Of a stretch of 64,000 bases of DNA, positions 48,981 through 64,000 are shown piece by piece. The position numbers and the translations under genes were made by a program. Each line of letters begins with the position of its first letter. Position 1 is the first letter of the stretch. The stretch comes from Phanerochaete sordida (lineage: Eukaryota; Basidiomycota; Agaricomycetes; Polyporales; Phanerochaetaceae). Location of the stretch: the NCBI GenBank assembly GCA_019973155.2, contig BPQB01000040.1, forward strand, positions 231,153 through 295,152. The letters are read 5' to 3'. The notes beneath the pieces were generated by a model. It worked only from the letters and a program-made list of their open reading frames with translations, did no database searches and had not been told where the DNA came from.

Positions 48981-50175
48981 ATGATATCTAGCGTGGTTGG
49001 TGTTTCCAGCGTCTTGTTGGCCTTGGCGGGAGGCGCGCTCTCGCAAGGCACCAACGCCAACTGCTCGGCCAAGTTCGATTGGGTGAGCGCTGCGGATGCT
49101 TCGCGCTGCTTCAGAGCTGACGGCATTCCCAGGCCAGCAACGATAGGCAGCAGGACATTTGCCTGATCACAGCTTATCTGCGCTCAGCATGTCTGGCGGA
49201 CCCCACTGGTATGTCTGGTACTTGCTGAGCTGAACTGTCCTAACGGTCCCTGGTGAACTAGATGCTTATGTCAATGCGCTGCCCGGCCCTACCTATTACT
49301 ACGTCCAGCCCACCCTCCCCGACAAGTGTACCTGCAGCATGGTGTACTACAACACCATCAGCGCCTGCGCGTTGTGTCAAGGAGGAGAAACAACGCCGTA
49401 AGCACCTGTTTCCGGCGCCCTTGTTTCCCGCTTCTCACGTCCGTTTTAGATGGTCAGGCTACATCACGAACTGCACTTCCGACGAGGTCACCAAGGCGGG
49501 TTTCCCTGACAACATTCCACTCGGGACGGACGTCCCCGCATGGGCGTATCTCGATGTGTCTCTCACAGACAATTTCAACGTGACGCAAGCGCTAGACTAC
49601 AGTCAGCTCAACGGCACTTTCGTCGAGGGACAGACACCGACGTCGAGCGCGCTCCCGAGCTCCACTTCCTCCTCCGTCTTCTTCTCTTCGAGCGCGGCAA
49701 CGAACTCGGCAGCCACATCCGCTCCTGCCGAGTCGACAACAGCGCCCGCCGTCACTTCTTCCTCACATAAGTCCAACGCCGGTGCTATTGCCGGCGGCGT
49801 GGTTGGCGGCGTTGCAGGCGTCGCGCTGATCGCGTTCGCGCTTTTGTTTTGGCAACGGCGGCGGACCCACACCGCGAAGCCTGGCATGGCCATTCACGAC
49901 GCGGAGCCGACGCTCATAGGCCAGATGTCACCGCCCGTTTCGCCCGGACCCATCCAAACGGGCTCCGTCGGCAGGCTCTACGTGAGTCCCTCGCTGTCCC
50001 TTACGCTGCGGAAAGGTAATAACATTCGAGCCTCGTGTAGAACCCCGACGACCCGACGACCTTCCCCAAGACGCATGGGGCTCCTGATATGGGCTATGCG
50101 TATGGTCGCGACAGCTCTGTCATGTCGACTGGGATGACCCACCCGACAGGATACACTGGTGCTGCTGAGCTATAG
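48981..50175 (+). CDS. 8-Cys single-pass membrane protein, array copy 1
   Basis: Uncharacterised Agaricomycete membrane-protein family. Five exons. Exon 1: signal peptide MISSVVGVSSVLLALAGGAL-SQ, then NCSAKFDW. Exon 2: DICLITAYLRSACLADPT. Exon 3: KCTCSMVYYNTISACALCQG. Exon 4: WSGYITNCTSDEV, IPLGTDVPAWAYLDV, a Ser/Thr-rich stalk, HKSNAGAIAGGVVGGVAGVA (TM) and RRRR. Exon 5: tail NPDDPTTFPKTHGAPDMGYA ending GAAEL at 50175. The eight cysteines follow C..C-x9-C..C-x-C-x10-C-x2-C-x14-C, all in the ectodomain. About 325 residues. The layout (signal, disulfide-rich head, glycosylatable stalk, one TM, short tail) suits a surface sensor or adhesin, but no function is known. Confidence 0.85.
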
Positions 50176-51197
50176 AACAATCGCGGACTTGCGATACCCA
50201 GACATATCATCATTAGTACCGTGCTCGTCTTTGCAATCACATCCACGTTCCCTGTCTCTTTCTGCCATCGTCCGGCGAAGGGAATAGAGAAGGGATTGGT
50301 CGCCTGTTAGCACGTCCGCTGTAGGCTCTTCGTATGCGTCAGATATCGTGTTGACGTGCAGAAGATGTTAGTCATCCCAATGGCGATACGTGGTGTCAGT
50401 GTCAGACGAAAAGTGGACAGCAGACCCTAAGGTTAGAGCCCAATACTAGTATACCGTTGACCTTCCCTTCCATGCTTCGCTGGATGCTGGCGCATGCAAG
50501 GCGCATGCAGACAGCATGTATTGGCTCGCTTAGCAAATATACGACCTTGAAAAGGCACAAAAATCGGCACTGTACGCATCTGCAAAACGAGATGCCCGGG
50601 GATTCTGAGAGCGTTGGGACTGAACGAGATCAAGCTGGAAGTCCTCACGGAGGATGCGCGCCTGGGGAGCGGCATCTCGGCATAGCTTCCGCGACGCGCG
50701 GAGGCCTGAAGCGCCAGCCTCGCGTTCGACTCGTCCGCGACGGTTCTCTCGGTATGTAAACCTTGTTTTTGCAGCAGATTCGTGCGTGCTAACGATTCTC
50801 GGCACAACAATTAGCTCGTTTTAGCTAGGAACGTTGGCAGGACCCTTTCAACCTGGGAAAGGACGGCGGTGCCGCACTTTTTCCAGGGATTTGACAGATC
50901 CGCGTACGAGGCATGGTGAGCAGCTGCCGACATTATGGCTGGATACTAGGGTTCCGACATCCCATTTACTGATAGATAGCTCTTCGCGATGTTCGCTATG
51001 GAATGTACAGCGGCGCATTCCGTCTATATCCGGTGAAGAAACACAGCCTGTGAACGCAGCTACGATCTCCGACTTTCTTCAACATGCATCCCGTGCTCTG
51101 GGCAGCATAAAATAGCGCGAAGCTTCCCGAGTGCAGCTCTACCCCGTCCTCCTGGCCTCCAGCTCGCCCATAGTTGACGACTGACTCCTCGACCGTC
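50176..51197. other. Spacer between array copies 1 and 2
   Basis: 1.0 kb. Searched for the CTCSM-YYN block and TM motif without success. The TATA-like element for copy 2 is listed separately. Confidence 0.5.
51106..51115 (+). promoter_or_regulatory. TATA-like box of array copy 2
   Basis: CATAAAATAG, 92 bp before the ATG at 51198. Confidence 0.45.
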
Positions 51198-52348
51198 ATG
51201 GCCCTCAACTCGGTCAGCGTCTTGGTCACTGTCCTAGCTCTGGTGATATGCGGTGTACTCTCACAGAGTACCGATGTCACCTGTGCCACGAGCTTCAGTT
51301 GGGTGAGCATCAATTTTCTTCGATTTTCTTTCCCCTTTTGTGTTTATTATTCCATCCCTTCCCAGACCGCCAACTCTTTCGGTCAAAACCCTTGTCTGGT
51401 CACAGCATATCTTTGGGAGGCATGTACAGAAGACCCTAGCAGTACGCTGAGTGCTTGCCGCTCTAGCTATTGAGACTAAATTTCTGACACACTGTAGCTG
51501 CATATATTCCAGATCTGGCTAGCATCGACTCGTCTACATATCCCCAGACGAACACTCCTACAGCATGCTCTTGCAGCATGGTATACTACAACACCATCAG
51601 CGCCTGTGCGCTGTGCCAAGGGGGTCAGACGCAAGCGTGAGTTTGTTCAAAGCCTTGGTTGTAAGCCCCTGCTTAGCGCGTGGTTTCCAGATGGACGAGC
51701 TACGTAGAGTCCTGTCCCACCTCCTTGATCACCTCGGACGCATCGTTCCCAGAATCCATTCCCGGTGGGACCACCGTTCCCGCCTGGGCCTACCAGGACG
51801 TCTCGGGGACTGACTACTTCGACCCGAACGCAGCCGAGCAAGTCGCACAGCAAGGCGGCGCTGCGGGCACAGGGCCTGCAGAGCCTTCTGGCAATTCCGG
51901 TTCACCTACGTCGGCGCCCTCCACTCCAGACCCCACGCCGAGCGCATCATCCCAGGGCTCCGGATCGAACGTCGCAGACATCGCTGGTGGGGTCGGCGGA
52001 GGAGTCGGCGGACTCATCGTGCTGGCGCTCGGGGCTTGGATCGTCTCGAAGCTCAATGGCGGTCCGAGCATCGGGAGTATCAACATCTTCAACTTTCACT
52101 GTCATGTGAGTAGCGTGTATACTCCTGTTTATCATGACATTGACCCCATGCAAGTCAAAGGGTGGCGGCTCGCATGCCTAGAGAGTAACGTTCACTATGA
52201 GGTGGACGCACGACCGAGCGACAGCGCGTTTGTATCTAAGCGTCCGCCGTTCATTCCTCATTCCTCGTCAATCGCACGCACAGGTTACGGTCGCAAACTG
52301 GCGCTGCCGAGCTCGGACAGTTCTAAGTACGGCCCGTCCTCTGAGTGA
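51198..52348 (+). CDS. 8-Cys single-pass membrane protein, array copy 2
   Basis: Exon 1: MALNSVSVLVTVLALVICGV-LSQ (signal), then VTCATSFSW. Exon 2: NPCLVTAYLWEACTEDPS. Exon 3: TACSCSMVYYNTISACALCQ. Exon 4: WTSYVESCPTSLITSDASF, IPGGTTVPAWAYQDVSGTDY, a Gly/Pro/Ser stalk, then DIAGGVGGGVGGLIVLALGA (TM). All eight cysteines and their spacing are kept, and intron phases 0,1,2 match the other copies. It differs in lacking the HYGPP block of later copies, in having no Arg-rich stop after the TM, and in a tail of different sequence to 52348 (GRKLALPSSDSSKYGPSSE). A GTGAGT after NFHCH could mark a further intron, so the tail is uncertain. Confidence 0.82.
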
Positions 52349-52992
52349 CACTAGACCGCGTGACATTCCTTCGCGTCGCTTCATAGCCGCGTAGACACGG
52401 TCTATCAACCTGAACCTCCTTTGGTCACAACTGACATTCTGGGCCTGCGATGCTGGGTCTCTCGACAGATGCCATGATGATCAAGATGTCCACGGTTCCC
52501 GGCCTTTTCGAAGCTTCCCGCGAGAAAGGCCACCATGTGCATATGTGTCCAGACAGTCTCGCTGACATCTACATGCTGACCTAGTCTGCCTTGGCAGCCT
52601 TTACCATCGTTGGCGCATGTGTCGACTGGAACTCCGAGGCCCGTTTCCGCTCGGAGCAGCTCGCTAATGCACGGGGACATACGAATAGCTTCCCTCCGCC
52701 ACCGCCGCCGCACACGCGATGTCTAAGGCGGCAACCTTTGACAGATATTGATGCAGATGCGCGGTGACTGGTGGTTGCCCTGGGCTCACAAGCTGAGTAG
52801 TGCATTATCTTCTTTTCGCAACATAGCTGACGCTCTACCACCATAATCATATCTGTTCGCGATAGATATCTTGTTGGAACTGACATAGCATATTTCAACA
52901 GAGTATAAAGGTGAGTGCGATTGAACAGGCGTATGCGCAAACCCACCTTGCACCTCCCGCGCCTCAATTTTTACTGAAGGTCTGCTGCCAGT
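52349..52992. other. Spacer between array copies 2 and 3
   Basis: About 640 bp, no gene recognised; contains the TATA box of copy 3. Confidence 0.5.
52904..52910 (+). promoter_or_regulatory. TATA box of array copy 3
   Basis: TATAAAG, about 90 bp before the ATG at 52993. Confidence 0.5.
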
Positions 52993-53999
52993 ATGCACCG
53001 TGCCATTCCCGCCGGGCTATTTCTTTTGCTGGCACTGCGTGTTGCTGCGCAGAAATCAGAGGTCACTTGCTCTTCGCCGAACTTCGCTTGGGTAAGTTCC
53101 ACAGTGGTTATGCTACGTCTTAGAGCGCGCTCCGAAACTTCGCTAGTCGAGCAACGATAAGGGCCAGGACACGTGCCTCATCGCTGCCTATCTACGTGCA
53201 GAATGCCAGCCCAATCCGACCAGTACGTTGTCCACGGATCTTTCGCTAAGTCTTGCCGTTTACTTTGGGGCTCCAGGCTTCGACCTTGGGCCGAGTAACT
53301 CGGGGCACTATGGACCACCTACGGACGTCAACAAGTGTACTTGCAGCATGGTCTACTACAACGCCATCAACGCTTGTTCTCTCTGCGGAGGCAATCAGAC
53401 TCTCCCGTGAGTAGATGCAGCCAGCTATGCCACAATGTCTGACCAAAAGCTACTCCAGATGGTCTGAGTCGATCACGCCCTGTGCGCCCAAGGATGTCAC
53501 TGTTGCCGGGTTCCCTGAGCCCATCCCCGCCGGCATTTCGATTCCTGCCTGGGCATATATCGACGTCACAAAAGCAAACGTCTTCAAGGCAGATGTCGCC
53601 AAGAATTTCAGCACGACGAACCATACGATGTTCAGCGCCGACGGCTCATCCCCTTCGTCCTCTTCTCCGTCCGCCTCTTTGTCAGCCCATACGTCCTCTC
53701 TTTTGTCGACCCGTTCGTCTGTCCCTTCCTCGAGCTCCGTACCTGCTAGCTCTTCGGCCAAGGAGCCTTCGGATACCTCGAGCCCGCCCACAATCGGCCC
53801 CATACCTCCATTATCGAGGTCCCCCACGGCTTCCTCCGCTAGCACGAATAGCGCTCCATCATCTCTACAGTCTGCCCAGCCGAGCACCCAGTCATCCGCA
53901 GCGAAGTCTCACAGTTTCAATGCGGGGGTCGTGGGGAGTGAAGCGGTGATCAGCGCGATCGCCGTCCTGGCTGCATCTGCCTTTCTGTTCGCCCTTTGA
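52993..53999 (+). CDS. 8-Cys surface protein, array copy 3, GPI-anchored variant
   Basis: Exon 1: MHRAIPAGLFLLLALRVAAQ (signal), then VTCSSPNFAW. Exon 2: DTCLIAAYLRAECQPNPT. Exon 3: FDLGPSNSGHYGPPTDVNKC and CTCSMVYYNAINACSLCGG. Exon 4: WSESITPCAPKDVTVAGFP, IPAGISIPAWAYIDVTKANV. A very long Ser/Thr/Pro stalk of about 120 residues follows. The protein then ends AGVVGSEAVISAIAVLAASA-FLFAL-stop at 53999. There is no basic stop-transfer and no tail, and the last 20 residues are hydrophobic after a small-residue SFNAG site. This is the form of a GPI-attachment signal, unlike the TM-plus-tail of its neighbours. All eight cysteines are present. Confidence 0.85.
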
Positions 54000-54908
54000 T
54001 CTCGGCCAGTCTCTCAACGCTTGCATGTCCTCGCATTAATGTAACCTGCACATGTATTTATTTCTGCAATTTTGACGGTTTGCTGCCATGGCGCAGTAGC
54101 GTGGCGCCTTTAAGACCAAGATTGTCAAGATTTCCTCAAAGCCCTGACGAGGAAATTTAGCTCGCCGGCAACATCCTGCATTTACCTATACAAAGTCGCT
54201 AGATGTTAATAACATCACGGGTAGATGTGCTCAGCTCGTGGTGGGCTTTGGACGGACTCTGGTTTCGAGGGCCGTAGTTCGCCGCTGGCGGGCATACCGG
54301 AGGTTGCCGGGAAACCCGGCTTCGGCTTGGCATCGACGCTGCTCGCGACGCTTGCCGTCGACCACCGAACGCATTGAGATACTTCGGATTCCTCACCGTC
54401 TACATCCTCTAACAAACTCGAATAGCTGAGCCAAATACTCTGTGCATTGACCTGTGTGTCGCAATGAGCTCGGCTAGTACTGCACGACTCGGGCCTAGTA
54501 TGAACGGCCGGGCCGCCCCACATTTGCACCCGACATGTCACTAGTTGCCTGATTGTTTGGAAGGTACGTATACCGGCAAACACGTTGAGATGAAGACTGA
54601 CATCCACTTTTTGCGTTCAAAGTTGGCAGCCTTCGCCCAATACCGAGGCATCTCTCACACTCGTTGCGAGGCAGCTGCGCATCACTGACTGCCGCACCCT
54701 GCTGGCAGATGGGATGTCACTCGCACTCTATGAGATGCGGTGTACTTCAGTGATCGTATCCAGGTGCGGTCTTTCTCATTCAGGTTTAGTATCCAAGATC
54801 CCTCACCTCGAGGAAGGATAAGGACGAGGTCGCGTATGCCGCGCATCTTTGTACGCCGGGGTAGCACCCCTCTCTTCCATTGTCCTATCCCTGCTGTTTC
54901 CTTCTGCT
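54000..54908. other. Spacer between array copies 3 and 4
   Basis: About 0.9 kb. A Ser/Pro-rich minus frame (54215-54607) has no ATG and no clear splice partner. No family block is seen. Confidence 0.45.
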
Positions 54909-56048
54909 ATGCGACACAGGCTCGCAGCTGCTTCGTGCTGGCTGCTGGCAGCAGCGGGCGGGATCTACGCGCAGAGCGCATCTGTCAACTGTTCCGCAGA
55001 CTTTGCATGGGTGAGTTCGGCGCCGAAAACCTGTGCAAATGTCTAAATCCCCTAGGCGAGCAACAACTTGGGTCAAAACGTGTGCGAGATTACAGCCTAC
55101 CTCCGTGCAGCCTGTACTGCAGATCCCGCTGGTGCGTGACGCACCTGTTGCCTCTGGACAGTATCTGACTCTGAGTATCAAGGATTTGACCTTGGTCCGC
55201 CTCAGTCAGGACACTATGGACCACCCGTCACACCCGACCGCTGCACCTGCAGCATGGCATACTACAACGCTGCCAGCGCGTGCTCTCTGTGTCAAGGAAA
55301 GCAGGTCCTATCGTGAGTGCAGCATACTCTGAGGCGCTAATGTTGTAGCTTCCTAACATGCGCCGCAGATGGTCGGCATCGATCAAGACGTGTCCCGCGA
55401 GTGACATTACAGTCTCCGGATACGGTCAGCCTATACCGTCAGGCACTGACATCCCTGCGTGGGCGTTTCTGAACGTCACATCCCTCGACACCTTCGACAC
55501 CGATACCGCCAGGACCTTCAGTACTACAAATTCTACGATGTTTGGCGGTGCCAGTTCATCCTCATCATCGTCAGTGATCATTTCTTTCCCCACCCTATCT
55601 TTGAGCCCCGCCTCGTCGGGATCCGCCAGCGCCACCCCGTCGGCAGCCTCAAACGGCCAAAACAAATCGAACGCCGGAGCCATTGCGGGTGGTGTCATCG
55701 GCGGACTAGCTGGCGCGGCAGCACTTGCATCTGCCGCGGTGTTCTGGTGGCGCAGGCGGATCCGTGCTCCTAGGGCTGCCGAGACTGCGGTCGACTTAAC
55801 GTCTCCGTGGACCTTCACCGGAGCGGCATTTGGGAAGCCATATGTGCGTAGCCTCGTCGAAATCGTTCATACCAGGCACCGTGCTGACCACGATATCGGC
55901 TTCACAGGATCCTGACGACCCTTCGACCTTCCCTGACGCATTACATCCGCCTACGATGGCGTACGTCCAGAGCCAGAGTGCCACCAATGTGACTTCGCCT
56001 AGTATCGCGAGCGCGCCGCCGGAATACACGCACTACGCCGAAGTATGA
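54909..56048 (+). CDS. 8-Cys single-pass membrane protein, array copy 4
   Basis: Exon 1: MRHRLAAASCWLLAAAGGIY-AQ (signal), then VNCSADFAW. Exon 2: ASNNLGQNVCEITAYLRAAC-TADPA. Exon 3: GFDLGPPQSGHYGPP, RCTCSMAYYNAASACSLCQG. Exon 4: WSASIKTCPASDITVSGYG, IPSGTDIPAWAFLNVTSLDT, Ser-rich stalk, NKSNAGAIAGGVIGGLAGAA (TM), WWRRRIRAP. Exon 5: DPDDPSTFPDALHPPTMAYV, ending APPEYTHYAEV at 56048. The last residues carry PPEY, a PPxY-type WW-domain ligand. Architecture, cysteine spacing and the DPDDP tail exon match copy 1 (NPDDPTTFP). Looks intact. Confidence 0.87.
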
Positions 56049-56568
56049 CAGTTAAGTGAAGTACAGGAATTTTGGTACGTTAGCCCACAATCACGCTCGT
56101 CTTGTCGTGCTGAGGAACGGACTCAGTTGTCGAACCGTTCTTGTGGCATATTCGTCCGCCGCCGGCCGGTACTATCAAGGACTCGAGGTCATCCTCCTGT
56201 TGCGATAGTTCGAGGACGTTGAATGCCTTACGTGCTTTGCTGTGCAGAGCGCGATGCGAGCAGAGCGGCTCCAGTAGGATAATTGCAGTTACGGATATTC
56301 CATGTAAGCGATAATGGACGCAAGGTAGCACTGATTATGTATCGCAGCCTCCGCTTGCTTGTGTTGCGACGCGATCCGCAGAGTCGTGCGGACATTATGA
56401 TTCCCTGCTCGCCCATCCAGCGAGGCCTTGGGTACCACCTATTGCCCGAACAGCTTGTTGCAAAGCCGAAGCTACATATCAGCGTTTGGGCGAGTGCACT
56501 CAGGTTCACAGAATACTCGCATGGGTACATTCTTGCTTGTTTTTTCAGCGTCGTTGTTCGACACGCGA
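56049..56568. other. Spacer between array copies 4 and 5
   Basis: About 520 bp; no gene recognised. Confidence 0.45.
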
Positions 56569-57260
56569 CACATGTCTGGTGTGTTGTTGCTGTTTCTGAC
56601 ATTGACGCATAGCGTGGCTTTCCAGATGAGCCCGAGTCCGACAAATCGCTTTCAGCACGCGGACTTTGACTGGGTGAGTCCGTGATTCTTGCGCCAGGTC
56701 TAAAATCTGATACAGCTTCGTTCACTTAGCAGCTGGGGTTAAGATATCTGTTCCATCACAGCGTACCTCCATGTACAGCGGACTCTTCCGGTACGCTCAA
56801 TTCCGTATACTTTGAAGCCTCGAGTCCTCACCACGTTTGAATTGTCCGTTTATCTTTGGCCTTCCATGGTCATTATGGACCTCCACCAGTTCAGCATCCC
56901 GCCTCTACGTCGCAAAGCGCTTCGCATAAGTTCGACGCTGATACCCTAGCTGCTGGCCTACTCAGCGGGATCTTCTGCGATTCGTCGCTAGCTCTGAAAC
57001 TTTGACTCTGGCTGCGGCAGCATCTCCAGGATAGTTGATCCTCCGCGCCCTCGAGTCTAGTCCCGGAGGCAGACAGAGCATTCCCATCCGGAATACATCC
57101 AGGAAATGTCTCAGAGAGTGACGACAGCGCGGACCGTCGCTCGGTAAGTGCTCTCGAACGCCCTGATCCGATTGCGGACATACTTAACATTGCTTCGTAG
57201 AGGCGTCTCTCGACTGGTATCAGCGCCATCTCTGAGCTTGCCTCTCTCACACCTGGTGTA
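56569..57260 (+). pseudogene. Decayed array copy 5
   Basis: Fragments in the right order. A signal-like MSGVLLLFLTLTHSVAFQ is followed by FQHADFDW and a GTGAGT donor (exon 1). Then a block like DICSITAYLH follows TAA/TGA-type stops, where intact copies have DxCLIxAYLRAxC (exon 2). Next GHYGPPP runs straight into SASHKFDADTLAAGLLSGI, the counterpart of NKSNAGAIAGGVIGGLAG. The CTCSM cysteine exon and the whole stalk are therefore deleted. A tail-like piece with a GTAAGT intron follows (about 57050-57260). Stops, deletion and loss of cysteines show it is dead. Confidence 0.7.
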
Positions 57261-57960
57261 CATGGCTAATCATATGTCTATAAGCTTTCATCGAGCCACT
57301 CCGCGATGGGCCACAGATCTATTGCGGCCAGATCACCAGTCTTCAAGTCTCCAAGTTTGCAGGTCCTCGGTCAAGTACGTCTTAGTAAGCATATGTTTGT
57401 CTTACTATATAGCGCCGAGCGGTCATGTTTACCTGTGAGCATAGTGTTGTATGCTGGGCAGCATCTAAATCACGCAGCTACGGTACAGCCTTTTCTTGAT
57501 CTTGGAAGCCAGCTGGCGAGCCCATGTCGACTGCGTCATCTATATCAATCCATATTACTGCGCCAACATTTCACATATATGTGCAGATAGCGTGTGTCTG
57601 GCGCACTCATGGCACGAAAGGTAACGTTCGTATCATCCAGGATATGATTTAAACAGGCACTAATAACAGCGTGCACCCAGTGCTCGCCTTCAATTTATCC
57701 AACCTACGCACGGGCTCGAACAGTGAGCGGTCGCTACTACTCTTGCTGCATTGTGAGGAAATCACGCGTCACAGCAATCGTAATCACTTCCACCTCGCTT
57801 CTAGATCGCATCGTTCTCTTGTGATGAGTGTTGTCGTGTCAAGCGCTACCGGCTAGGGGTTCCTACGGCTCTCCGCCATTCGATATAAATACGGGGCGCA
57901 CCAGACACGCAGTATTGCATACGCGTTTGTCTCTCCTATACCTTGTTATTTACCCTCTCC
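57261..57960. other. Spacer between array copies 5 and 6
   Basis: About 0.7 kb, nothing recognised except the TATA box of copy 6. Confidence 0.45.
57884..57890 (+). promoter_or_regulatory. TATA box of array copy 6
   Basis: TATAAAT, 77 bp before the first ATG at 57961. Confidence 0.55.
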
Positions 57961-59195
57961 ATGGCATGTATGGCTATGCGCCATAGTACTGCCGCTTCTT
58001 TGTGCTGCATACTGGCAGTGATGACCGGTACTTTTGCACAAAAAACAACGATTAATTGCACAGCAGAGTCATCTGATTTCGAATGGGTGAGTGTTGACGC
58101 AAATGCTTGTTTCGCTCATACCTCATCTCAAGCCCGCCAGGCAAGTAATAATTTAGGTCAAGACGTTTGCCTCATCGCAGCATTCCTCCGGGCAACCTGT
58201 GAGACGGTTCCGACGAGTATGTCGTATATTGCCCTATGAACGTACGGCGGTTGAACTTGCCTTCGAAGATTATACTCTTAGCCCGCCCCAGCATGTACAT
58301 TATGGGCCGCCCTCGGATCCCAACCTCTGCACCTGCAGCATGGCCTACTACAACACCGTCAACGCGTGCTCTCTATGTCAAGGGCTGCAGACGCTACCGT
58401 GAGTGTAGTATACTCTCTCTAAAGGCCCATAGCGCTATTTATCTACAGATGTGCTCTAGGTGGCTGTTGTCAGTGGGGCCATGTATGCAACATATCATCA
58501 CAGTCACTGGATATCCGCTGCCCATACCATCTGGTACAGCCATCCCTGCGTGGGCATATTTAAACAGCGCACAGTCCGGTAATTTCGATGTGGCCGCAGC
58601 GAAAACCTACAGCCAAATAAACAGTACTAGCATCGCTCCCACACCGCTCGAATTGTCTTCATCAGACTCAGCTGCCCCGACCCATACTCCCGCTGCGTCT
58701 TCAACAAGCGCTATGCATGAAACGTCTTCATCAGACTCAGCTGCTCCGACCCATACTCCCGCTGCGTCTTCAGCAAACGCTATGCACAATATCGACGTCG
58801 TTGGTCTAGCTGGTGGCTTAGTTGGCGGAATAGCTGGTCTGCTGCTCGTCGCTTCGATGACCATGCTCTGGCGGCGGCGGCGATTCAAGAGTGATCTTTC
58901 CCCTACTATGCTACCATCACCCGGCCCCTACGCAGCGAGGCCATTCCCATTCTTCATGCCTGCGGAGGAAGAATCCGAAGGCGATGACGAAGGACAGCCT
59001 CGCTCGATGGGCCCCGTGGCTCCATTGGACTCAGAGCCTCCTTCCTATAGCACAATACAACATACTCCATGTCGTCAAGCTCAGATAGTAAGTAGTCAGT
59101 AGTCCTTCGCAAAAGCCTGTTTATTCACCAACCAGCCGCAGGATCATGGGTCTGCCGCTGTTCCCCACCGCTGTTCCGCTGTTCCCAACGTGTAA
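57961..59195 (+). CDS. 8-Cys single-pass membrane protein, array copy 6
   Basis: First ATG 57961 (alternatives 57970 and 57976; the latter, MRHSTAASL, matches copy 4 best). Exon 1: TAASLCCILAVMTGTFAQ signal, then INCTAESSDFEW. Exon 2: ASNNLGQDVCLIAAFLRATC. Exon 3: YTLSPPQHVHYGPPSDPNLC, TCSMAYYNTVNACSLCQG. Exon 4: WLLSVGPCMQHIITVTGYP, IPSGTAIPAWAYLN, a short stalk with a 23-residue repeat, GLAGGLVGGIAGLLLVASMT (TM), WRRRRF, and an acidic tail EEESEGDDEG with SEPPSYSTIQ (PPSY motif). Reading on, the stop is at 59102. A strong GTAAGT...CCGCAG intron would instead lead to DHGSAAVPHRCSAVPNV and a stop at 59193. Eight ectodomain cysteines kept. Confidence 0.85.
58655..58792 (+). repeat. In-frame 2 x 69 bp repeat in the stalk of copy 6
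   Basis: Units 58655-58723 and 58724-58792 both encode SSSDSAAPTHTPAASS(T/A) and differ at few positions. Each is exactly 23 codons. Confidence 0.85.
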
Positions 59196-60168
59196 GTACT
59201 TCGGCCTGATGTCCGGTAAAATGCTGGCTGAGCCTGAGGCAGTAACACCAGATCAAATCGAGTTCATCGGTTGGCAAGGAAGGCCTGAGCCTGAGGCGCA
59301 CATTGTTCAAGGCAGGGTCATTCCGTAGGATTGATACCAATTTTCCGTGCTAATGAGCCCAGAAAAGATGTTTCAGATTCTGTAGGGCAGGTCGGGGCAG
59401 GATGTCATATCCTGCGACCATTTCCGCTCCAGGGGAAGCCAGGACTACAACAAGAGGCCCCCAAAGGCAAGCCGCGCGAATGGTTGTGGGCAAGCCGACG
59501 CTATCTTTGAGTCGCATGAAATCCCCTTCTTTCCGACTCGCATCCAGACACGCCCCGAACCAGACTCTAAAGAGTAGACAGACTCGTGAGCGGACTTTGT
59601 TTTAACTTGTAGAACTTAGAGACTCGCGTTGATCAGTGTGTGTGCAGTATTATTTATATTTTGCGGGATCTTCCCGGGCACTTGTGCACCTGTAGCATGC
59701 GCTCACAGATGTCCGTATTCTGGTTCCACTACATAGCACTAGTACTGTGTACTGCCTGGTAGAAGCGCGCTCTACGTTTTTGTGCGTAGAAGTGCTCCAC
59801 AGCATTATAGTCCACACCGTGAGTAGAAAGCCAGGTACGCTCAATATAGACTTTAGGGAGTAAGAGGATAATTACGTAGGAAGGTACGTTCCGCGGAGTC
59901 TACGTAGTTGCCTTCTGCAACTTACAGTTACGCAGCTCGGCCACAGCCGGAGTCGTCGCGGACAGCGTTGTCAGGCATGGAAAGCTGCAATCTTGCACGA
60001 ACAACGCGACATTGTCAATCATCTCCGATAGTCATGCACGACCGTTTCCACGGCCCATGATGTCGTTTTACCGCAGTCTCCATGTCGGAGCGAAGCATAA
60101 AACGCGGAGGCCGCTGAGGTCTCTCGACCGAATGTGCGTCCTCGTTCCCCTATCTACGTTGCTTTACC
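59196..60168. other. Spacer between array copies 6 and 7
   Basis: About 1 kb; no gene recognised. A CATAAAAC element at 60096-60103 lies about 70 bp before copy 7. Confidence 0.45.
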
Positions 60169-61072
60169 ATGCAACACCGATTCGCTCATTCTCTCTGTCT
60201 CCTGCTGGCTCTGGTATGCAGCATTTCTGCGCAGAGTGCCCCGGTAAATTGCTCAGCGACCTTTGACTGGGTGAGATCCATATTGTATATCTTTCGAGCG
60301 CGTCTTAAGTTTCACTCAGGCTAAGAACAGTCTAGGCCAGAACATCTGCTTCATAGCAGCTTACCTTCGAGCGTCCTGCCTTCATAATTCCACTGGTATG
60401 CTACTTTGTGACTGTACTAATAGCGTAGCAGATGCTAACGACAGAGCGTCTCTAGCCTTCACTCTCGGGCCACCTCAGTCCGCTCGGGGCACTATGGGCC
60501 GCCCTCCGATTCTAATGCATGTACTTGTAGCATGGTATATTACAATAGCATCAGCGCCTGCGCGCTGTGCCAAGGAGAGCAAATATTGCCGTACGTCTAT
60601 CATCTTCTAGTGTGTCTGTCTGTCACCCAGTTCTTGAGAAGCACGTTTCAGCTGGCAGCCCTCAGTCTCCCATTGCTCCCCAGGCGACATCACGTACGCA
60701 GGATACCCGCTGTCCACGCCTTCAGGCATAACTATTCCCGCATGGACATACCTCAACTTCTCGCAATCTAGCTTCGACGTTGTTACTGCTAAGGCAAAAG
60801 CCGAGAGTAGCAGCACCATGATAGCGCGTACGCCGAACGGGGGAGCCATCGCAGGCGGAATCATCGGCGGGCTAATCGGTGTGACTGCAGCGATCATAGC
60901 TGTGGTCATATTCTGTTTGCGGAGGCGCAGGCCGCGGACCCGCACTGCAGTCCCAGAGCTCGCATATCCTGCGTCGGAGATCGTGCTATCATCTGTTGTT
61001 TCGCCTCCTCCACTGTCAGTCAGCGGTGCTGGTGGCCCAACGCTCTATGTGAGTATCCGAGTCACACTTTGA
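60169..61072 (+). pseudogene. 8-Cys membrane protein, array copy 7, frameshifted in exon 3
   Basis: Exon 1: MQHRFAHSLCLLLALVCSIS-AQ, then VNCSATFDW. Exon 2: AKNSLGQNICFIAAYLRASC, ending in phase 1 like all copies. Exon 3 begins FTLGPPQS in that phase, but the conserved part (GHYGPP, ACTCSMVYYNSISACALCQG) lies in another frame: relative to copy 4 there are 5 extra bases near 60478-60486. No alternative GT or AG in the flanking introns restores the frame. Exon 4 is clean: WQPSVSHCSPGDITYAGYP, IPAWTYLNFSQ, almost no stalk, NGGAIAGGIIGGLIGVTAAI (TM), RRRRPRTR. The tail exon DPDDP is missing. Either a young pseudogene or a base error in the assembly. Confidence 0.6.
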
Positions 61073-61436: not shown

Positions 61437-64000
61437 TTAGCAAAAGTATGGAACCTGACGAGATCCCACGTACCAGGCCGACAGGTACACGTCGTGCATC
61501 ACGCGATGGTACATCCGGGGGCCTCCCTCGCGTATGTCGTCAATGAGCTCGAGCACCTTCGTGTACTCTTCGCGGCATGCTGTGAGTGCAAACATTTCCG
61601 CGCGGTTGCGCTTCCCGTCCTCCTTGACCGTCGGGCCACGTCCGTTGCGCCACAAGTCCAGGGAAAGCTTAATCTACAAGGGCTCCGTTAGCAGCGCGCC
61701 AGGTCTGGATGAATGCCCATGAACGTACCATTGCACAAGTGAGCGCGAGCATCGGGATCGGGATCTCGAGTTCGTCTGCCTTGTATCGGTCGCTCGAGGT
61801 GAATCGCTCAGGGAACATGCTTGACACCGAAGGCTTCTTGGCCGTCGAGGTGAAGAAATGGATCTGTAGGGTCCTGATGACGAGGGCGCGATAGAACGGA
61901 TTTTTTCCATCAAGGGTTCCCTGGGGCGTAGCAGACATGAAATATCGTGAGCACAAGGCAAGAGGAGGGCCCGAGAGATGCTTCGCTAACCTGCAGAATA
62001 TCGCCGGGATAGGCGTATGCTTGCTTTACTAGTAGGGCCTTGACGTGGTCCTCACACTCGCCGCGAACAAGCTTGAATTCGTCGACAACCTGGCTATCAG
62101 TATACTTCTTCATATTAGTCCGCAGGTTAGCGTTGCGCTGCTCAACCTGTGGGCTCGCAAGCTGCGTGAGTGATGCTATCGTCAGGTGATGCAAAGCACA
62201 GGAGACTCACCGCTTTGACAAACACTTCCATGTAATAGAAGTCGTTCTTCAGCCGATCGACGATGGGCGTGTAAGCGCTTCCAAGTGCGATGGCCTGGTC
62301 AAGAATGATTTCGCGTTGTAGTCTGGACCGGTCCGGCTCGAGGTAGAGTGCTGAGGCCAAGGTGAGCGCACTACTTCGCAGGTGATGTAGACACGCACCG
62401 CAGTCGAACGCGACCAGTGCAGCAACGTGGTTCATTGCCGCTCGCATGAGCTGCGCGATGTGTGCGGCCTGGTCTGTGAGACGCACTTCGCGATTCGTAC
62501 TCCATACTAGCCTAGTGATCGGGTCGAATCGGGCCTCCCACTGCTTGAGCGAATCGAGCGTACGCCCATGGTGAGGCATCTGCTGTGGGTCAATGTCTTC
62601 GGCCTTAACGGCTGCCGATGCGGACTCGGTTAACGCGGTATGTGTGGGAGGGGCCGTGGATGATATCGAGCTGGCCGACTCCGTGCTATTCGTATTGACG
62701 GCTGAGCTCGTTGTGGGGAACGTCGGCCGCTACACAACAGTCAGTGTGATGGAGTTCCTGGGTCATGACGACGTACCTCGATAGCATCAGCGTGTCTGTC
62801 AGACCTGGAGCGCTTCTTGGGAGGATTGGACGATTGTTCCTCGTCGCCTGAGCCAGCGGACACTTGCGTACGCTTCGTACGAATCGCGGTCGATGGCTCT
62901 TCATCCGAGATGGTGTTCGCTAGCGGTAGCTCAGCCTTGAGCCGGAGAGTTCGAACCACATAGAGGTCATACTACGATCAGAAAGCACACGGTGCGGAGA
63001 CATGACAAGACGTACCGCGGTCTTGGAAGACGCTGCGCTGTCATCAACTGAAAGATCCTAATGATATCCACAGATTAGCATCGACAAAGAATTGAGGGTA
63101 TTCACAACGCACCTGGATCTCCTGCTCAATCTCGTCGCAGGCAGATCGATTGCGCTCTGCAGGGTCTTCGTCGCTGACCTCGTCCTCGCTACTCGACAGA
63201 TCGTCGGAGTATTCACTCCCAGATGAACCAGACGCGGTGTCGACTTGGGAAGAGGAACCCGAGTCATCGCTTGATGACGACTCTTCCTCCTCGAAGTCGG
63301 AGGACCGTGGTGATGGGCGGTGTGCTTTGTTGTTGGGCTTGTCGAGCTTCTTCGAGCCCTTGGGCTTGCAGGACTTCTTCGAGCCCTTGGACTTGTCGGA
63401 CTTCTTCAAGTCTTGATCCTTCGACTTCTTCGCAGTCGAGCCCGTGTTGATTTCGGCCGTGTTGTGTGTAGCAGGCCGCTGCTCAGGCTTCTCTGTAGCA
63501 CAGTGTGAGGGTATGGACAAGCGAAGAATAATAGGCACAGACAGCGCACCTTGCTGCGAGGCCAGAATGGGTGGCAATGCGCCAGAAACGGCCGTCTGCT
63601 CACCAGCAGCGTGAACGACGTTCGTGGTCGGGGAAGGCGCTGCCAGAGAGTTTGTGTCCTCCGTGGGGATTATCCCCGTCGCCTTCGTGCTGCCATGGAT
63701 CCGCTTGGGGGGCACGACAATTTTGGCAGCGCTCAGCGGGCCCTCGTCGTCGCTGTCGAGAGTGGTGCGTGCAAGTACAGGACGAGGACGCGGAGCGGCT
63801 GTAAGGGCATGCGTAAGCCTCGACGTATTTGGGCAGGTGGACCCACAGCAGCACTTACGGGTCGATTGTTTGTGCACAGTTTGGGCACCATCCGCATCGC
63901 CTTTTCCCTGCGATTCCTCGTGATCCTTATCCACTTTCGCTGCAGCTCAACCGTCAATACTGTACCTGCGCAACCACAGTCATCGCTGCTGCCCACCTTT
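61437..64000 (-). CDS. DUF6532 domain protein (5' partial)
   Basis: Runs off the right edge. The leftmost coding is ... HRVMHDVYLSAWYVGSR with a stop at 61437. The N-terminal two-thirds (about 62590-63940) is disordered: a Lys/Ser tract with KSKGSKK/KPKGSKK repeats, an acidic tract (SSDFEEEESSSSDDSGSSS) and a basic NLS-like PPKKRSRSDRHADA. The C-terminal domain has ITRLVWSTNREVRLT, DRLKNDFYYMEVFVKA, VRGECEDHVKALLVKQAYAY with PGDILQ, NPFYRALVIRTLQIHFFTS, DELEIPIPMLALTCAM and EEYTKVLELIDDIREGGPRM, the pattern I know from basidiomycete DUF6532 proteins. Function unknown. The first exon is probably beyond 64000, since an acceptor (GCTGCAG) precedes the first coding seen and GTGGGC at 63996 may be its donor. 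Confidence 0.75.

What the first reader, a model, noticed from the sequence alone, without database searches (positions are those of the whole stretch)
48981..61072. Head-to-tail array of seven copies of an 8-cysteine membrane-protein family
At least seven copies lie in the same direction over 12 kb. Every readable copy has the same eight-cysteine plan, with invariant spacing C-x9-C, then C-x-C-x10-C-x2-C-x14-C, the phrase IPAWAY-like, a Ser/Thr stalk and a GAIAGG-type TM. Stalk and tail diverge strongly while cysteines do not, which is how surface receptors or adhesins under diversifying selection look. I know similar uncharacterised proteins in Agaricomycetes but no assigned function.
Basis: partly seen in the sequence, partly recalled or inferred. 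Interest (0 to 1): 0.8.

Follow-up and report, generated by a model that had tools for sequence, protein, structure and literature searches.

The report
Tandem fungal receptor-like surface protein genes
A wood-rotting fungus carries a row of old gene copies for a widespread, unstudied family of mushroom-fungus membrane proteins with a cysteine-rich head and, in many members, a conserved tail, so they look like surface sensors whose ligand and partner are unknown.

Summary
The array is real. The window lies in Phanerochaete sordida. Six copies with a readable head and one relic lie head to tail at 48981-61072, with conserved intron phases and eight cysteines; one of the six (c7) has a broken or unusual exon 2/3 junction. 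The genome holds at least 17 more head-bearing loci. Three searches gave 187 proteins, 160 with the core head; the named ones are Agaricomycetes. Pfam matches only the TM segment; AlphaFold gives the head a confident helical fold without a PDB match.

The last exon, hidden behind an intron, carries Y[DN]PxDPSTFP and a C-terminal YxGx[PA]E[VLI]; with variants, 141 and 137 of 160 have them. In P. sordida 8 of 23 loci keep both (5 strictly); other tails are degraded, replaced or lost. Diversifying selection is not seen: pN<pS in 253 of 253 head pairs, most saturated, so the copies are old.

Best reading: type I surface sensors, built like WSC/Mid2 sensors but not members, with an unknown partner for the tail. 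Boldest reading: a paired-receptor-like array, one head with several tail classes.

The parts
48981..50175 (+). Copy c1 (PsYK624_106690), 326 aa: exons 48981-49082, 49133-49208, 49262-49397, 49450-49981, 50041-50175; signal peptide, 8-Cys head, S/T stalk, TM, canonical tail NPDDPTTFP...GYTGAAEL
   Evidence: closest relatives P0003 and P0005 (P. carnosa)
51198..52181 (+). Copy c2 (PsYK624_106700): exons 51198-51302, 51366-51441, 51498-51636, 51691-52105; database model ends ...HCHSKGGGSHA; no canonical tail found
   Evidence: the end at 52181 was placed by eye from the database protein on the sequence
52993..53999 (+). Copy c3: exons 52993-53091, 53147-53222, 53277-53406, 53459-53999; ends in a hydrophobic stretch with no charged residue in the last 15, so GPI-anchor-like or tail-less
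54909..56048 (+). Copy c4 (PsYK624_106720), 307 aa: exons 54909-55010, 55056-55131, 55183-55312, 55369-55843, 55908-56048; tail DPDDPSTFP...PPEYTHYAEV (motif 1 canonical, end a variant)
   Evidence: (structure)
56570..57000 (+). Copy c5, relic: exon-1 piece (ADFDW), exon-2 pieces (DICSITAYL; CTADSSG in another frame), exon-3 piece (HGHYGPP); C1 and the CTC core lost
   Evidence: moderate support
57961..59195 (+). Copy c6: exons 57961-58086, 58141-58216, 58269-58398, 58460-59088, probable last exon 59142-59195; tail lacks both canonical motifs and carries PPSYSTIQ (PPxY)
   Evidence: last exon placed by eye, tentative
60169..61072 (+). Copy c7: exons 60169-60270, 60320-(60395 or 60413), exon 3 to 60590, exon 4 60652-61048 or to the stop at 61072; canonical exon 2/3 junction out of frame, alternative GT-AG 60413/60479 open; no canonical tail seen downstream
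49262..49397 (+). c1 exon 3, encodes the core C-x-C-x10-C-x2-C
   Evidence: (family D1)
55908..56048 (+). c4 exon 5: cytoplasmic tail exon with motif 1; the C-terminus YTHYAEV is a variant of the family end

Best explanation
The genes encode type I single-pass cell-surface sensors. A signal peptide leads to a compact helical head with eight near-invariant cysteines; a Ser/Thr-rich stalk holds the head out into the cell wall; a glycine-zipper TM helix (GAIAGGVVGG-like) allows tight helix packing or dimerisation; in the family at large a cytoplasmic tail presents two short motifs, Y[DN]PxDPSTFP and a C-terminal YxGx[PA]E[VLI]-COOH, that dock a cytosolic partner. Binding or wall stress at the head would be passed through TM pairing to the partner. 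In the P. sordida lineage the family grew by old duplications into several clusters; heads stayed under purifying selection while tails were kept, degraded, replaced or lost. Shown: gene structure, tandem order, cysteines, predicted TM and head fold, tail motifs, purifying selection, expansion. Inferred: surface location, orientation, disulfides, dimerisation, docking, sensing.
For: Architecture. All eight Cys present in 147 of 178 aligned heads; of the 31 others, 6 have a substitution and the rest only gaps or missing parts (29 of 187 database proteins were left out of that set by pattern or as truncated). Tail: of 160 core-head proteins 141 carry Y[DN]PxDP[STR]T[FY]P (106 the strict DPSTFP form), 137 a loose and 115 the strict C-terminal motif, 128 both loosely, 10 neither. 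Mean top-residue frequency in 86 aligned relatives: motif 1 0.77, TM 0.64, C-terminus 0.62, head 0.53, stalk 0.33, tail linkers 0.26-0.28. A tail-only query (43 candidates) returned 24 proteins at E<=10, all with the tail and 23 with the head pattern; the other, P0100, has a head with a core piece missing. TM segment resembles receptor TMs in profile searches: TM_ErbB1 in 73 of 86 at E<=1, mostly under cut-off, and APP/ErbB/EphA2 chains. Purifying selection. Expansion: 20 of 23 P. sordida loci with P0003 and P0005 lie on one side of a branch with support 98/97 (47 rows, midpoint root).
Against: No ligand, partner, localisation or expression evidence. Only 8 of 23 P. sordida loci keep motif 1 and an [AP]E[VLI] end, 5 of them in the strict form, so signalling cannot be assumed for every copy; in the array only c1 and c4 have the tail. 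The homologue counts lean towards tailed proteins because tail words were among the search words. Disulfide pairing could not be inspected. The TM matches may be compositional.
Confidence: 0.5

Rival explanations
1. Wall-anchored adhesins or structural surface proteins: the head binds wall or wood polymers or neighbouring hyphae, the stalk is a mucin-like spacer, and the TM or GPI end merely anchors it.
For: S/T 0.42 and 0.46 in the c1 and c4 stalks; c3 ends in a hydrophobic GPI-like stretch; 8 of 23 P. sordida loci have no recognisable canonical tail and 5 a degraded one; the stalk diverges faster than the head.
Against: The tail motifs are among the best-conserved segments in the sampled Agaricomycetes, which a mere anchor does not need; no adhesin domain among the Pfam families shown (25 of 76 shown).
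Confidence: 0.22
2. Endocytic or sorting receptors: the head captures an extracellular ligand or nutrient and the tail motifs are sorting or ubiquitin-ligase signals that drive uptake and turnover.
For: Short tail motifs and no enzymatic domain matched; PPxY sequences in the tails of c4 (PPEY), c6 and L043-1998 (PPSYSTIQ), and downstream of L044+2240 in an exon I did not model (PPEY). That PPxY can recruit WW-domain ubiquitin ligases is recalled, not tested.
Against: PPxY occurs, anywhere in the protein, in only 10 of 160 relatives; I had no test for whether the canonical motifs are sorting signals.
Confidence: 0.17
3. Polymorphic recognition receptors under diversifying selection, e.g. for hyphal self/non-self recognition.
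For: Tandem array, copy-number expansion in the P. sordida lineage, and varying tails.
Against: pN<pS in 253 of 253 head pairs; no region above 1 in the two pairs tested by region; c1's heads are 0.75-0.77 identical among P. sordida, P0003 and P. carnosa P0005. Pair averages cannot exclude a few sites or polymorphism within the species.
Confidence: 0.06

Closest known systems
WSC-type cell wall integrity sensors (Wsc1; Pfam PF01822)
   Same: Type I plan: extracellular domain with eight cysteines, Ser/Thr-rich stalk, one TM, cytoplasmic tail (PMC9024836, passages seen).
   Different: The WSC domain has a PAN/Apple fold with a beta sheet (same passages); here the head model is helical. PF01822 matches 44 places in this genome, none at the family's loci.
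Mid2/Mtl-type sensors (recalled; several relatives are named 'Mid2 domain-containing' in UniRef)
   Same: S/T-rich ectodomain, single TM, cytoplasmic tail (recalled).
   Different: Mid2-type sensors have no 8-Cys head (recalled). Nine relatives, seven of them bearing the Mid2 name, matched no Mid2 model at E<=0.1.
CFEM domain proteins (PF05730)
   Same: Eight cysteines in a similar order: the P. sordida CFEM of L047 has gaps 3, 9, 6, 1, 11, 4, 15, the array heads 15-18, 9, 25-28, 1, 10, 2, 14 (c7 aside). CFEM being helical is recalled.
   Different: Loop lengths differ; PF05730 matches 4 places in the genome, none at the family's loci; hhalign probability at most 0.4% against four P. sordida sequences.
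'Epidermal growth factor receptor-like TM' annotation (PF21314)
   Same: Glycine-rich TM segment.
   Different: Only the TM segment matches, mostly under the cut-off (over it in P0060 and P0129); no match covers the head.

Membership tests
WSC sensors (PF01822) | WSC domain match in the head | tested here: not met
   44 PF01822 matches in the genome, none at the family's loci; WSC is not among the 25 Pfam families shown, of 76 matched, for 86 relatives
WSC sensors (PF01822) | PAN/Apple beta fold of the cysteine-rich domain | tested here: not met
   Head models are helical with only tiny strands; Foldseek found no PDB match at E<=0.001; a direct superposition on a WSC structure was not run
WSC sensors (PF01822) | Type I plan: signal peptide, 8-Cys domain, S/T stalk, one TM, tail | tested here: met
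   c1 and c4, by sequence, hydropathy (c4's signal peptide scored under the 1.6 threshold) and model
CFEM (PF05730) | Profile similarity of the 8-Cys domain | tested here: not met
   the hhalign test is weak because each template was a single sequence
Mid2 family | Mid2 Pfam domain | tested here: not met
   No Mid2 model among matches at E<=0.1 for nine relatives
This Agaricomycete family (as described here) | C; C-x9-C; C-x-C-x10-C-x2-C-x14-C head followed by a PAWAY-like segment | tested here: met
   c1, c2, c3, c4, c6; c7 with a splice caveat
This Agaricomycete family (as described here) | Tail motifs Y[DN]PxDPSTFP and C-terminal YxGx[PA]E[VLI] | tested here: inconclusive
   In the array: c1 both; c4 motif 1 with a variant end; c2, c3, c6, c7 neither found
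Cell-surface sensor (function) | Plasma-membrane location, ligand or stress response, cytosolic partner | not testable with these tools
   needs bench work

The most novel reading that the evidence does not exclude
The clusters are a fungal counterpart of paired-receptor gene clusters: a conserved, possibly novel-fold head is coupled by tandem duplication to different intracellular outputs (canonical docking tail, PPxY tail, no tail, GPI-like end), so that copies with related ligands compete as signalling, turnover and decoy receptors.
Probability: 0.15. Interest if true: 0.8.

Novelty: new variant of a known kind. Interest (0 to 1): 0.5.

Why it matters
Mushroom-forming fungi must sense walls, wood and neighbouring hyphae, yet few single-pass receptors are known in them (recalled). 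This family is widespread in the sampled Agaricomycetes, has no Pfam match over its head in my scans, and no function in print that my paper searches listed (most subscription papers are not held). It combines a confident predicted head fold without a PDB match with two conserved cytoplasmic motifs. The motifs are a ready bait for the downstream partner, which makes the question of what these proteins do directly testable in tractable mushrooms.
Full report
What is there. The window is contig C40:231153-295152 of a 40.8 Mb assembly. Copies c1 and c4 are letter for letter Phanerochaete sordida proteins PsYK624_106690 and _106720, and c2's four exons are the start of _106700; the contig of these proteins is given as 295152 bases long, like C40. 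P. sordida is in Polyporales, Agaricomycetes. That the strain is YK-624 follows from the tag prefix and the genome paper's title (listing). I spliced six copies by hand: c1 48981-50175, c2 51198-52105 and beyond, c3 52993-53999, c4 54909-56048, c6 57961 to about 59195, c7 60169 to 61048 or 61072. Introns 1-3 lie at phases 0, 1, 2 (c7 is out of frame at exon 3), and the last one in c1 and c4 at phase 0; exon 2 is 76 nt in each. A relic (c5, about 56570-57000) keeps collinear pieces of exons 1-3; its support is moderate, since the highest of 100 Markov sequences scored more.

The cysteine spacing (C; C-x9-C; C-x-C-x10-C-x2-C-x14-C) is exact in c1-c4 and c6 (c2, c4 and c6 have further cysteines in signal peptide or tail). 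c7's canonical exon 2/3 junction is out of frame; another GT-AG junction keeps it open with an added cysteine.

The genome. DNA and protein searches and spliced alignment of fetched loci give 17 further loci with a modelled head: six on C44 at about 196-208 kb (+), one on C44 near 225 kb (-), four on C44 at 252-262 kb (-), three on C18 at 255-261 kb (+), two on C10 (-), one on C52 (+). With the window copies that is 23 loci with heads, plus the relic. The genome search scores only its best candidates and I fetched only part of the matched places (matches on C6, C7, C5, C1, C76 and two more on C40 cover stalk, TM and at most adjoining tail, and were not fetched), so 23 is a lower bound.

Relatives. 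A search with five array proteins gave 94 proteins (E<=0.001; 7997 candidates scored), a tail-only search 24 (E<=10; 43 candidates), and a search with 86 of the first set 130 at E<=1e-5, of which 120 are listed. In all 187 proteins are held, 160 with the core C-x-C-x10-C-x2-C. The strong named matches are from genera that I recognise as Agaricomycetes (orders recalled: Polyporales, Boletales, Russulales, Agaricales, Hymenochaetales, Cantharellales, Auriculariales and others). Weak matches under about 75 bits, among them two Aspergillus proteins, lack the core head and, where I looked, the tail. The searches scored only candidates sharing most words, so absence from other fungi is not shown. 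Near-consecutive locus tags on one contig (Ganoderma adspersum V8D89_005452, 005453, 005455, 005457) suggest arrays elsewhere.

The tail. Exon 5 in c1 and c4 reads NPDDPTTFP...GYTGAAEL and DPDDPSTFP...YTHYAEV. Of 160 core-head proteins 141 carry Y[DN]PxDP[STR]T[FY]P (106 strictly DPSTFP); 137 have a loose C-terminal motif (115 strictly YxGx[PA]E[VLI]); 128 have both loosely, 111 motif 1 with the strict end, 10 neither. Across 86 aligned relatives the mean top-residue frequency is 0.77 in motif 1, 0.64 in the TM, 0.62 at the C-terminus, 0.53 in the head, 0.33 in the stalk and 0.26-0.28 in the tail linkers. Caveat: tail words were among the search words, which favours tailed proteins.

A view less biased comes from the own genome, where loci were found by head exons. 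Of 23 head-bearing loci, 8 keep motif 1 (some as DPDDSSTFP or NSDDSSTYP) and an [AP]E[VLI] end: c1, L039+1955, L039+7089, L042-2175 and L043-5618 with the strict end, c4, L044+4331 and L044+6156 with a variant. One has motif 1 only (L045-3757), one the C-terminus only (L045-1802), 5 degraded versions (L039+4230, L039+8906, L041-1972, L040+2167, L044+2240) and 8 none found (c2, c3, c6, c7, L040+4132, L042-4306, L043-1998, L046+2026). The sources are; the grouping, and the degraded ones and c7, are judged by eye. c6 and L043-1998 share another tail with PPSYSTIQ. Motif 1 occurs in the six frames of the 64 kb window only twice, in c1 and c4.

A tail-only query returned 24 proteins; all carry the tail and 23 the head pattern, while P0100 has a head with a core piece missing. 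I read all 13 proteins that have motif 1 but no intact core: eleven show pieces of the family head; P0093 and P0169 show none that I recognise; none shows a different known head. So head and tail travel together in this sample, whereas the TM type also occurs with other heads (P0178, P0180, P0184).

Selection and age. Nei-Gojobori on heads of 23 loci: pN<pS in all 253 pairs, maximum pN/pS 0.82, 236 pairs with dS>1.5 or saturated (c7 in its alternative splice). For the two least saturated pairs dN/dS is 0.19/0.25/0.50 and 0.60/0.33/0.67 for signal peptide plus head, stalk, and TM plus juxtamembrane. So the heads are under purifying, in one pair relaxed, selection. Pair averages cannot exclude positive selection at few sites. 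In a maximum-likelihood tree of 47 heads (the 23 loci and 24 chosen database proteins), 20 of 23 P. sordida loci with P. carnosa P0005 and unnamed P0003 lie on one side of a branch (98/97); the other three group with other species. Only one P. carnosa protein was in hand, so how old the expansion is within Phanerochaete is open. c1's head is 0.77 identical to P0003 and 0.76 to P0005, its stalk 0.55 and 0.44, its tail 0.77 to P0003; P0005's database model lacks the tail.

What it does. The plan resembles WSC sensors (PMC9024836, passages seen), but the head matches neither WSC (different fold in the passages) nor CFEM. I favour a sensor with a docking tail (0.5), with adhesin (0.22) and endocytic receptor (0.17) as rivals. 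Shown: anatomy, conservation, expansion, tail turnover. Inferred: surface location, dimerisation, docking and sensing.

Literature. No paper describing the family appeared in the listings; most subscription papers are not held, so this is not proof of absence. Beyond listings I saw passages of PMC9024836 and PMC10949477 only.

Noticed in passing
58650-58786: A 69-nt tandem duplication (two copies, 93-95% alike) lies in the stalk of copy c6, probably a recent stalk lengthening.
   Followed up: no
61672-62025 (-): An ORF downstream of the array matches DUF6532 (PF20149, 30.9 bits, cut-off 24).
   Followed up: no
63333-63407: A 27-nt repeat with 2.8 copies, inside a Lys/Ser-rich ORF on the minus strand.
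   Followed up: no
G000 contigs C9, C47, C15, C2, C81: The 44 WSC-domain (PF01822) matches of this genome are themselves clustered on five contigs.
   Followed up: no
P0169 (Trametes pubescens protein): A database gene model with TM and motif-1 tail twice in a row, perhaps a fusion of neighbouring tandem copies.
   Followed up: no
P0015, P0040, P0060, P0129, P0162, P0169: Family members bear misleading source names (Mid2, EGFR-like, Lid2 complex component, carcinoembryonic antigen-related); in those scanned (P0015, P0040, P0060, P0129) Pfam gave no match over cut-off other than the TM model.
   Followed up: partly
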